Below, one piece after another: positions 21,479 to 49,552 of a DNA stretch of 64,000 nucleotides. How positions within the stretch are numbered: position 1 is the first letter of the stretch; the number at the start of each line of letters is the position of its first letter. The notes beneath the pieces are model-generated. The model saw nothing but the letters and a program-made list of their open reading frames with translations, had not been told where the DNA came from and searched no databases. Location of the stretch: NCBI RefSeq assembly GCF_000012385.1, contig NC_007940.1:1-64000 (forward strand), written 5' to 3'. Origin of the DNA: Rickettsia bellii RML369-C. Lineage in GTDB: Bacteria; Pseudomonadota; Alphaproteobacteria; Rickettsiales; Rickettsiaceae. The position numbers and the translations under genes are program-made.

Positions 21479-21602
21479 AGGTGTCATCCCGTGGCTTGCT
21501 AACTAGATAAAGAAAATAATAAAAAATACAAATACGATAAGTTTTTAAAAATAAAAGCTCGATTTATCTCGCTTTATGCTGGATCTAGTTAGCAAGCCAC
21601 GG
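21479..21602 (+). repeat. RPE interrupted by the IS110 element
   Basis: The left arm GTGTCATCCCGTGGCTTGCT (21481 on) pairs with ATCTAGTTAGCAAGCCACGG, which ends at 21602. The rest of the expected right arm, GATGAC, is found at 22810-22815 after the insertion sequence. The common downstream RPE tail (GGGCGTTTTCTGATCCATGC, then GCCGCCACGGGATGAC-like sequence) follows to about 22865. Removing 21603-22809 restores an uninterrupted palindrome. Confidence 0.85.
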
Positions 21603-22809
21603 TATTGTAAGAAAAGAAAGTGATATAATATAAGTTATAAATGTAATATAAACATTTATAAGAGAGTGTTAATACCCTATATAATGATATAGGGTATTAA
21701 GCGGGCATAAGCGACCGTCACGGTATAGTAGGTTTTATACGACCGGAGTCATCAAGGTACTATAGCCCGACTCTCGAGAAGTTTGAATAGTTGGAAGGGA
21801 TGCGATAAGCACGCCCGATTACAATCCTAAACAATATAAAATCTCGAGGTACATATGATAAAATATCACAAACATATAGGAATTGATATAGGAAAATATA
21901 ATTTTGTAGTAGGAATAGAGGGCATAAAAGATACAAAAGAATATGAGAATACAAGTTTCGGTATATTTGAATTTATTAATGATAATAAGGATATTTTAGC
22001 AAACTCTCTAACTGTAGTTGAAACAACAGGCGGATATGAACTAGAGTTATTGTATAGCTTATGTGAAAGAGGTTATGTAGTACATAGAGCAGATGCAAGA
22101 AAGGTAAAGAATTTTATCAGATCATATGGTAATAGTGCAAAAACAGATAAGTTAGATGCTAAAGCATTAGGATTATATGGTAAGGAGCGAGCAGATAAGC
22201 TTGAAGTATTTAAGCCTGAATCAAAACAAAATATACAATTATTTCGGTTAGTACAAAGACGGAATGATTTAAAGCAAATGTTAGTTGCCGAAAAGAATAG
22301 ATTACAACAAGCAAATACAGATAAGTTTGTTAAAAATAGCTGTATAAATATGATAGATGTTTTAAGTAATCAAATTACAGAGATTACTAATCAGGTAGAA
22401 GTGATTATATCATCAGATCAGCTGTTAAAAGCAAAGCATGAGATATTGAAAGAGATAAATGGCATTGGTAATATAGTTGCTTTTGAGTTATTAATATTAT
22501 TACCGGAGTTAGGGAAGTTAACAAGACGGCAGATTGCTTCTCTTGCAGGGCTTGCTCCAAAAGCTAATGATAGTGGTAAATATCAAGGATATAGAAAGGT
22601 AGGACATGGTAGAGCAGGAGTCAAGCCTATACTATTCCTTGCTGCTATGTCAGCCCGTAATAGCAAGACTTCTGGTTTAAGACTCTTTTATGAGCGACTC
22701 ATTAACAATGGTAAAAAGAAAATGGTCGCTCTTACCGCTTTAATGCGTAAAATTATTGTCATCGCTAATGCTAAATTAAAATCTCTTCTTTTTAATTTAA
22801 AACATAGTT
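21603..22809 (+). mobile_element. IS110-family insertion sequence inserted in an RPE
   Basis: About 1.2 kb, containing a non-coding left region of about 250 bases and one DEDD transposase gene. The boundaries come from the disrupted RPE: CCACGG just left of 21603 and GATGAC from 22810. Removing the element rejoins them as CCACGGGATGAC, the RPE consensus. No inverted repeats and no target duplication are seen, as is usual for IS110. The exact ends are uncertain by one or two bases because the shared core dinucleotide cannot be resolved. An extended -10 box TGATATAAT at 21621-21629 may start the non-coding RNA. Confidence 0.87.
21671..21848 (+). ncRNA. Candidate bridge RNA (seekRNA) of the IS110 element
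   Basis: A perfect 12-bp hairpin comes first (21671-21682 with 21687-21698, loop AATG). The second part has an outer stem CGGGC 21702-21706/GCCCG 21765-21769 and an inner hairpin GTATA 21723-21727/TATAC 21736-21740. Its internal loop holds GTCACGG (21717-21723; left target GCCACGG with one G-U pair) and AGTCATC (21747-21753; complement of the right target GATGACT). The third part has an outer stem CTCGAG 21773-21778/21843-21848 and an inner stem GGG..TGC/GCA..CCC. Its loop holds ATAGTTG (21787-21793; equals the right end 22804-22810) and TTACAAT (21819-21825; complement of the left end ATTGTAA 21604-21610). This is the IS621 bridge-RNA plan. Transcript ends are guesses. Confidence 0.85.
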
Positions 22810-22811
22810 GA
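21855..22811 (+). CDS. IS110-family transposase (bridge-RNA-guided recombinase)
   Basis: 318 residues. The N-terminal RuvC-like DEDD domain shows Asp in GIDIGKYNFVVG, Glu in VVETTGGYE, and two Asp in SAKTDKLDAKALG. A coiled linker follows. The C-terminal Transposase_20 domain has INGIGNIVAFELLILLPELG and RRQIASLAGLAPKANDSGKY, with the conserved serine region. The frame looks intact, so the element may be active. The TGA stop (22809-22811) spans the right boundary: T belongs to the element and GA to the target RPE. The DEDD sites and Ser nucleophile act together with the upstream RNA in known relatives. Confidence 0.93.
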   Translation: MIKYHKHIGIDIGKYNFVVGIEGIKDTKEYENTSFGIFEFINDNKDILANSLTVVETTGGYELELLYSLCERGYVVHRADARKVKNFIRSYGNSAKTDKLDAKALGLYGKERADKLEVFKPESKQNIQLFRLVQRRNDLKQMLVAEKNRLQQANTDKFVKNSCINMIDVLSNQITEITNQVEVIISSDQLLKAKHEILKEINGIGNIVAFELLILLPELGKLTRRQIASLAGLAPKANDSGKYQGYRKVGHGRAGVKPILFLAAMSARNSKTSGLRLFYERLINNGKKKMVALTALMRKIIVIANAKLKSLLFNLKHS

Positions 22812-22909
22812 TGACTACCTTAGGGCGTTTTCTGATCCATGCAACAATGCTGCCACGGGATGACAGAAGATATAATTCACGCAAACATATAAATAAAACA
22901 TATTAACTT

Positions 22910-44314: not shown

Positions 44315-44470
44315 TAACGTTTGGCTGCTTGGTTCGTGAGCTTAATATTAGCCTAGGACTACCACTAACTTTAGGACATCGTCCCTGTCTAATACTCATT
44401 TAAGTTTAGATATATGAAGTCCACCTTTACATAAAGGTCTTTGAAGGATTTTAAGTAACGACTAAAGCGG
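44315..44470 (+). ncRNA. ssrS: Probable 6S RNA
   Basis: The non-coding stretch after zapA is where ssrS sits in many proteobacteria. The 5' part (CGTTTGGCTGCTTGG) can pair with the 3' part (CGACTAAAGCGG) with mismatches, CTTAA with TTAAG inside it, and GGACATCGTCC forms an apical hairpin. This gives the long irregular rod expected of 6S. The RNA mimics an open promoter and binds sigma-70 polymerase. Ends are approximate. I did not confirm the bubble sequence, so position carries most of the weight. Confidence 0.5.
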
Positions 44471-44475
44471 TCATT

Positions 44476-44582
44476 TGTCATCCCGTGGCTTGACCACGGG
44501 ATCCAGCATAAAGCGAGATAAATCGAGCTTTTAATATTCGTATTTTTTTACTAGAACCCGTGAATAAATCACGGGATGACAC
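44476..44582 (+). repeat. Intergenic RPE
   Basis: The left arm TGTCATCCCGTGGCTTGACC is followed by ACGGGATCCAGCATAAAGCG, the usual GCGAGATAAATCGAGCTTTT core, and the mutated right arm TAGAACCCGTGAATAAATCA, ending CGGGATGACA. It lies between the 6S-like RNA and the MFS gene. Confidence 0.82.
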
Positions 44583-49441: not shown

Positions 49442-49458
49442 AAAGGTTATGTTAATTA

Positions 49459-49543
49459 TGCTAGTAGTGGGCATCGTGCTTATTTAGTTGGTCAGGTCCG
49501 AGAGGAAGCAGCCAGAGTAGGATTCGCTGGGTCACTACTAGTA
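49459..49543 (+). ncRNA. ffs: Signal recognition particle 4.5S RNA
   Basis: The SRP RNA apical core is clear: GGTCAGGTCCGAGAGGAAGC followed by AGCC, with the GNRA-like loop (here GAGA) and symmetric and asymmetric loops. The closing helix is CTAGTAGTG (49461-49469) with CACTACTAG (49533-49541). It binds Ffh and FtsY. The order ffs-dnaX-ybaB is found in other proteobacteria, which supports the call. Ends are set by the helix. Confidence 0.95.
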
Positions 49544-49552
49544 ACAGTTTTC

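What the first reader, a model, noticed from the sequence alone, without database searches (positions are those of the whole stretch)
21671..21848. Candidate bridge RNA with guide loops matching both IS ends and the RPE target
The leader of the IS110 transposase has three parts: a 12-bp hairpin, a loop with target-like segments, and a loop with donor-like segments. In the second loop ATAGTTG (21787-21793) equals the right end (22804-22810), and TTACAAT (21819-21825) is the complement of the left end (21604-21610). In the first loop GTCACGG (21717-21723) reads like the left target GCCACGG (one G-U), and AGTCATC (21747-21753) complements the right target GATGACT. The side and strand of each match are as in IS621. 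The two exact 7-nt donor matches, in the right loop sides, are very unlikely by chance. I know of no described Rickettsia bridge RNA, but cannot check the literature.
Basis: partly seen in the sequence, partly recalled or inferred. Interest (0 to 1): 0.93.

Follow-up and report, generated by a model that had tools for sequence, protein, structure and literature searches.

The report
RNA-guided jumping element in Rickettsia
A mobile DNA element present 27 times in this Rickettsia genome very probably encodes a guide ('bridge') RNA that pairs with the element's own ends and with a repeated palindrome of the host, which explains where it inserts; the mechanism is known from other bacteria, and the member is new.

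Summary
Confirmed and extended. The leader of the IS110 recombinase (CDS 21855-22811) carries a two-loop RNA, 21703-21848, behind a 5' hairpin. They share the fold, with compensatory changes in 9 of 31 pairs. Their target guides differ and fit their own sites: 10 distinct left guides pair at 5.73 of 6 variable positions with their own site against 2.85 with others' (0 of 200,000 permutations). In three distant relatives (42-47%) donor guides and element ends differ together. A circle would form a promoter (TTGATT, 17 bp, TATAAT), as in IS621. So this is a bridge RNA: new member of a known kind, AT core, dispersed palindromic repeat as target. Side observations: a purine just before the core is never used (0 of 25 used sites, 136 of 158 free sites); two relatives show a GT target core against an AT donor core. 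Transcription and activity are untested.

The parts
21585..21602 (+). right arm of the repeat (CTAGTTAGCAAGCCACGG) into which the element is inserted
   Evidence: 56 sites CTAGTTNNCAAGCCACGG in the genome, 21 of them directly before a copy
21596..21603 (+). left target (LT) GCCACGG-T
   Evidence: GCCACGG in 24 of 25 copies counted (one GCTACGG), then T in 17 and C in 8
21604..21605 (+). left copy of the AT core
   Evidence: shared by both junctions and by free sites; joined flanks of copy L021 are 97/100 identical to a free site, the other 23 joined sites reach 46-89
21606..21611 (+). left end of the element (right donor) TGTAAG
   Evidence: found in relatives too (the search looked for this string); pairs with the RDG
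21624..21629 (+). -10 box TATAAT; with TTGATT formed at the RE-LE junction (17-bp spacer) a sigma-70-like promoter in a circle
   Evidence: (the script prints spacers one too long) and direct reading
21669..21700 (+). 5' stem-loop
21703..21848 (+). two-loop part of the bridge RNA
   Evidence: covariance model 137.9 bits (this copy type was in the model), covariation
21717..21726 (+). left target guide GTCACGGTAT (variable part 21719-21724, core 21725-21726)
21731..21744 (+). apical stem-loop of the target-binding loop
   Evidence: compensatory pairs GC/AU and UA/GC
21745..21753 (+). right target guide GGAGTC, core AT, then C (handshake position)
21773..21848 (+). donor-binding loop with closing stem CTCGAGA/TCTCGAG
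21787..21793 (+). left donor guide ATAGTTG
   Evidence: identical to 22804-22810; the same in the 12 RNAs, which were picked by a motif that contains it; differs together with the end in L194 and L196
21819..21826 (+). right donor guide TTACAAT plus handshake C
   Evidence: complements ATTGTAA at 21604-21610; with C it complements the circle junction G|AT|TGTAA (direct reading)
21855..22811 (+). IS110 recombinase, 318 aa, DEDD (D11, E56, D98, D101) and S240
   Evidence: Pfam PF01548 and PF02371; IS621 recombinase 8wt6 E 6.2e-23 with these residues aligned to D11, E60, D102, D105, S241
22803..22810 (+). right end of the element (left donor) CATAGTTG
   Evidence: the same in the 26 copies that keep a right end and in relatives
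22811..22812 (+). right copy of the AT core; its A completes the stop codon TGA
22813..22818 (+). right target GACTAC; pairs with the RTG at 5 of 6
   Evidence: own scores, copy L003

Best explanation
The leader of this IS110 element encodes a bridge RNA. The excised element circularises (inferred), which joins a -35 box in the right end to a -10 box in the left end and switches on the RNA (inferred from sequence). The recombinase binds the RNA (inferred). The second loop pairs with the element's own junction CATAGTTG-AT-TGTAAG, the first loop with the host repeat GCCACGGY-AT-GAC; strands are exchanged at the shared AT, so the element lands between two copies of AT inside a dispersed palindromic repeat. 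Shown here: anatomy, covariation of stems, guide-target concordance across elements, junctions. Inferred: transcription, RNP formation, strand exchange.
For: 27 copies (25 near full length) in the genome; one uniform pair of junctions defining an AT core; a paralogous empty site 97/100 for L021. RNAalifold on 12 homologous leaders finds both loops unaided, 9 of 35 pairs with compensatory changes; my structure of 31 pairs: 94.2% of cells paired, 23 double-change cells against 7.3 in shuffles, at most 4 when slid. Left guides fit own sites 5.73/6 against 2.85 (0 of 200,000 permutations; 10 distinct guides), right guides 4.61/6 against 2.48 (595 of 200,000; 6 distinct guides). The model locates the RNA directly upstream of distant IS110 genes, and in three of these the donor guides differ and fit their own ends (by eye). 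Protein relation to IS621 and ISCro4.
Against: No expression or activity data. The 12 leaders were picked by a motif containing ATAGTTG (20 of 23 loci given had it), so the constancy of the left donor guide is partly by selection, and donor covariation rests on three distant elements read by eye. Type B copies (guide C before the core) sit at T sites in 6 of 8 cases, a mismatch. G199 copies fit their left sites only at 4.1 of 6 on average. The own target is the row maximum in 7 of 10 left guides and 5 of 6 right guides, not all. One covariation measure, further pair types, is not above shuffles (150 of 500). One copy (L010) has a right flank that does not fit, probably a later rearrangement. 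14 of 21 copies in CTAGTT-arm repeats share a further outer arm seen in 1 of 35 free ones, so not every copy need be an independent insertion. L194's left guide fits its flank only with a one-base shift.
Confidence: 0.96

Rival explanations
1. The leader is a structured 5' UTR that regulates the recombinase gene (attenuator or small RNA), and the matches to ends and target are by-products.
For: Structured leader directly before the CDS; small RNAs were thought to modulate recombinase expression in ISPpu9 (mentioned in PMC11208160, passage).
Against: Loop sequences change with the insertion site from element to element, which regulation does not predict.
Confidence: 0.02
2. The recombinase alone reads the repeat; target-like loop sequences are remnants copied from insertion sites.
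For: The copies in this genome share one target motif.
Against: Relatives of 53-64% identity use quite different sites, each fitting its own loop at the same register, on opposite strands for the two sides; stems covary.
Confidence: 0.01
3. Copies spread as parts of the repeat (repeat plus element moved together, or gene conversion), so the common target is not repeated targeting.
For: 14 of 21 CTAGTT-arm copies share an outer arm found in 1 of 35 free repeats.
Against: At least seven different left contexts (L006, L013/L026, L014, L020, L025, CTAGTTCCC group, CTAGTTAGC group) and varied right flanks carry the same junction; relatives show the same rule. It can be true for part of the copies without touching the bridge RNA.
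Confidence: 0.15

Closest known systems
IS621 bridge RNA of E. coli (PMC11208160 and PMC11208158; passages and section 12 of the first seen)
   Same: 5' stem-loop, target loop then donor loop in the left end; LTG and LDG pair with the bottom strand, RTG and RDG with the top strand; dinucleotide core included in the pairing; promoter split across the circle junction; dispersed palindromic repeats as targets (REP for IS621 is recalled)
   Different: core AT instead of CT; recombinase distant (8wt6, E 6.2e-23); contiguous 7-nt RDG instead of discontiguous pairing; different guide sequences and target
ISCro4 recombinase (PDB 9t56)
   Same: homologous recombinase (E 2.3e-22)
   Different: its RNA was not compared here
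ISRpe1 of Rickettsia peacockii (PMC2791219, passages)
   Same: multi-copy element in Rickettsia that goes with rearrangements; IS110 membership is recalled
   Different: the words IS110, palindromic and target site do not occur in that text; 2 of 22 same-genus genomes searched had a relative of this protein at E 1e-30 or better, 35-38% identical; ISRpe1 itself was not compared

Membership tests
IS110-family bridge RNA system (IS110 group) | DEDD RuvC-like plus Tnp domain recombinase with catalytic serine | tested here: met
   D11, E56, D98, D101, S240
IS110-family bridge RNA system (IS110 group) | long non-coding left end holding the RNA, short right end | tested here: met
   left 21604-21854 (251 nt); the stop codon lies at the right end
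IS110-family bridge RNA system (IS110 group) | conserved RNA fold with two internal loops | tested here: met
IS110-family bridge RNA system (IS110 group) | first loop complements the two sides of the target on opposite strands | tested here: met
IS110-family bridge RNA system (IS110 group) | second loop complements the element's own RE-LE junction | tested here: met
   exact 7-nt matches; guides and ends differ together in L194, L195, L196 (by eye)
IS110-family bridge RNA system (IS110 group) | core dinucleotide common to target and donor | tested here: met
   AT in 25 of 25 left junctions counted (L015, which lacks it, and L027, which has no left end, were left out). The CT of IS621 is not met, but GT, AT and TT cores are reported to support IS621 recombination (PMC11208158 passage)
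IS110-family bridge RNA system (IS110 group) | promoter rebuilt at the circle junction | tested here: inconclusive
   -35/-10 boxes with 17-bp spacing by sequence; no transcription data
IS110-family bridge RNA system (IS110 group) | RNA is transcribed and binds the recombinase; recombination depends on it | not testable with these tools
   needs RNA reads and biochemistry

The most novel reading that the evidence does not exclude
One IS110 lineage of intracellular and amoeba-associated bacteria keeps its donor side nearly fixed and repeatedly rewrites its target loop to whatever palindromic repeat is dispersed in its current host. Beyond the classical guide, target use is also limited by the base before the core (G would pair with the handshake C of the RTG and cannot pair with U or C of the LTG) and by a hairpin arm that competes with the guide. 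Two relatives show a natural GT target core against an AT donor core, kept apart on the two junctions as top-strand cleavage 3' of the core would predict.
Probability: 0.35. Interest if true: 0.6.

Novelty: new member of a known kind. Interest (0 to 1): 0.45.

Why it matters
It gives a natural series of guide and target pairs in a lineage with an AT core: two guide types within one genome, ten related elements with other guides or hosts, and 158 free against 25 used sites in one genome. That is a ready data set for what limits target choice beyond simple pairing (base before the core, handshake position, competing hairpins, core mismatch). It also explains why this element sits in the palindromic repeats of the genome.

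Tried and rejected
Single-sequence folding of the leader without its hairpin is not significant. Rfam at its gathering thresholds gives no family here. A distant blastn of the element against plasmids gave one partial hit in Candidatus Megaera polyxenophila, 25% covered, not followed. The scan of 398 genomes of the phylum with the RNA model, under stricter filters, found two other genomes with weak matches, not followed. Considered and rejected: that the T or C before the left AT is brought by the element (T and C occur with both guide types; L020 and L014 have palindromic arms that predict the C found; the RDG complements G|AT|TGTAA of the donor). Considered: that hairpin arms of the repeat block pairing. 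Among pyrimidine sites, CTAGTT arms are 20 used/2 free and hairpin arms 1 used/15 free (counts), p 1.3e-7; counted by distinct contexts I judge this weak (estimate, no call), so it is kept as an idea. My first left-end finder picked a wrong TTGTAA in G199; the corrected run is. One search printed circle junctions with one T too many, and spacers one too long; the values in this report are corrected.

Full report
What is there. Window 21604-22812 is an IS110 element of about 1.2 kb. Its recombinase (21855-22811, 318 aa) matches PF01548 and PF02371 and the IS621 and ISCro4 recombinases of the PDB (E 6.2e-23 and 2.3e-22), with the catalytic D, E, D, D and S of IS621 aligned. The genome (one contig, 1,522,076 bases; the size fits R. 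bellii RML369-C as I recall, not tested) holds 27 copies, 25 near full length.

Junctions. In 25 of 25 copies counted (L001-L014, L016-L026) the left junction reads GC[C/T]ACGG-Y-AT-TGTAAG. L015 (two bases fewer, GCCACGG-TTGTAAG) and L027 (no left end) were left out. Of 26 right junctions, 25 read CATAGTTG-AT-GAC and L010 does not. So AT is the core, shared by target (GCCACGGY-AT-GAC) and donor (CATAGTTG-AT-TGTAAG). Joining the flanks of copy L021 gives a sequence 97/100 identical to a free repeat of the same genome; the other 23 joined sites reach 46-89.

RNA. The model match is 21703-21848, behind a 14-bp 5' stem-loop. Relatives came from protein searches: matches in 5 of 38 relatives, 3 of 58 of the family, 8 of 143 of the family of L. 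nautarum, 5 of 385 of the class (each of 22 and 53 counts the own genome), and 19 loci of a public scan. Of 23 loci looked at, 20 hold the motif TTTG.ATAGTTG (L175, L181 and L191 do not). From these I took one leader per genome, ten relatives, plus the two guide types of the own genome: 12 leaders, alignment A4. RNAalifold, without being told, finds the target loop, its apical stem, the donor loop and its apical stem, with 9 of 35 pairs showing compensatory changes. My structure (31 pairs): 94.2% of cells paired, 23 double-change cells against a shuffled mean of 7.3, 0 of 500 shuffles as high on four of five measures (150 of 500 on further pair types), and at most 44.5% paired when slid.

Guides and targets. 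The left guide is GT + 6 variable + core; GT is constant in all 12. On the six variable positions, wobble allowed, own sites score 6 for seven of the ten distinct guides, 5.9 for type A, 5.2 for type B and 4.1 for the G199 guide; mean own 5.73, other 2.85, 0 of 200,000 permutations as high; own is the row maximum in 7 of 10. Right guides: 4.61 against 2.48, 595 of 200,000, own the maximum in 5 of 6. Elements with a repeated guide were left out of the test by design: on the left G218 and G074 (read from the table they fit at 6 and 5 of 6), on the right type B, G185 and LEG1. G074, G205 and G218 have no right end in the stretch.

Distant relatives. Over 27 loci besides the window the model locates leaders directly upstream of IS110 genes of 35-47% identity: L194, L195, L196, L154, L181, L153 (L157 is weak, L165 is not adjacent). 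None of these was in the model. Read by eye: L195 left guide CTCGCA-AT fits its flank CTCGCA-AT, and its donor guide GACAAT fits its end ATTGTC; L196 GACAAT fits ATTGTC and GAGTTG fits its right end; L194 GGGTTG fits its right end and AACAAT its left end, while its left target fits only with a one-base shift. I did not work out L154, L181 and L153. So donor guides change with the ends too.

Promoter. In a circle, TTG of the right end, the core AT and T of the left end make TTGATT, 17 bp before TATAAT (21624-21629). In the nine elements with both ends the best -10 box (4-6 of 6 letters) lies 17 bp away in 7, 18 in G199 and 15 in G185 (corrected by one; the script picks the best box within a range). 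IS621 rebuilds a promoter in the same way (PMC11208158 legend passage).

Which sites are used. The genome holds 158 free GCCACGGNATGAC sites; 22 have a pyrimidine at N. All 25 used sites have one (T 17, C 8; Fisher 3.5e-18). Counted by about eight distinct contexts this stays improbable by my estimate (no call); copies are not all independent. Type A guides have U there (pairs with the T site, wobbles with C); type B have C, yet sit at T in 6 of 8. The handshake base of the RTG (PMC11208158 passages) is C in all 12 RNAs and would pair with G at N before exchange. This could add to the exclusion, but five relatives whose LTG has G there do use G (G164, Lnau, G218, G205, G023). Used sites lie mostly in repeats with a CTAGTT arm (21 of 56 such sites used).

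Relatives and repeats. In three of the other genomes the target motif is also dispersed: G185 16 and G039 11 copies of GNAGCAATCYAGA against 0 of the reversed control, G199 17 copies of CCGCGGNATCYA against 1; 4 of 11 G199 copies sit in that motif. G370 has 7 of the first motif, but its own element sits in a different site nearby. So the lineage seems to re-aim at host repeats.

Core mismatch. G023 and G053 have GT at the left junction and AT at the right, and their LTG reads GU and RTG AU at the core. Top-strand cleavage after the core (PMC11208158 passage) would keep the target core on the left and the donor core on the right, as seen. IS621 tolerates GT and AT cores.

Literature. No paper in the held library has 'bridge RNA', 'IS110' and 'Rickettsia' together; 15 have 'bridge RNA', 'IS110' and 'recombinase' since 2024 (listing only, 14 shown). 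PMC11208160 predicts bridge RNAs in 85.7% of IS110s (section read), so the finding is expected in kind. Seven papers hold 'IS110' and 'Rickettsia bellii'; of these I looked at passages of PMC2635572 only, which show an IS110-type transposase on a R. felis plasmid and mention many transposases in R. bellii. Rickettsia repeats are called RPE there; I did not test which RPE family this one is.

Verdict. A bridge RNA by the sequence tests available here; new member, known kind. Interest moderate, raised by the used/free site data and the retargeting series.

Noticed in passing
own genome, 158 free sites; copies L001-L026: No used site (0 of 25) has a purine before the AT core, although 136 of 158 free sites do.
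   Followed up: partly
L018-L025: Second guide type in the same genome: C instead of U before the core and three bases fewer after it; L022 and L024 lack the T of the RTG core, L023 and L025 an A after the RTG.
   Followed up: partly
L015 left junction (own genome near 254572): Left junction GCCACGG-TTGTAAG lacks two bases (one core copy); the only one of 26 left ends like this.
   Followed up: no
L092, L173: Left junction core GT, right junction core AT, with LTG GU and RTG AU: natural core mismatch between target and donor. L092 also holds a separate right end followed by GT.
   Followed up: partly
L010: Right flank ATTAAATAAG instead of ATGAC: probable rearrangement between copies.
   Followed up: no
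copies with changes at 22626, 22608 and 22241: At least 12 of the 25 near-full copies carry recombinase frameshifts (11 lack a C at 22626, 4 of them also with an extra GT at 22608; L015 has an extra T at 22241, whose output was cut), while 26 of 27 keep the RNA region: the RNA could serve in trans.
   Followed up: no
left flanks of 14 of 21 CTAGTT-arm copies: A longer repeat unit with outer arm GTGATTTATGAACTAGA, seen in 1 of 35 free CTAGTT-arm sites.
   Followed up: partly
window 44319-44477 and 49456-49549: 6S RNA (just above its threshold) and small SRP RNA by Rfam.
   Followed up: no
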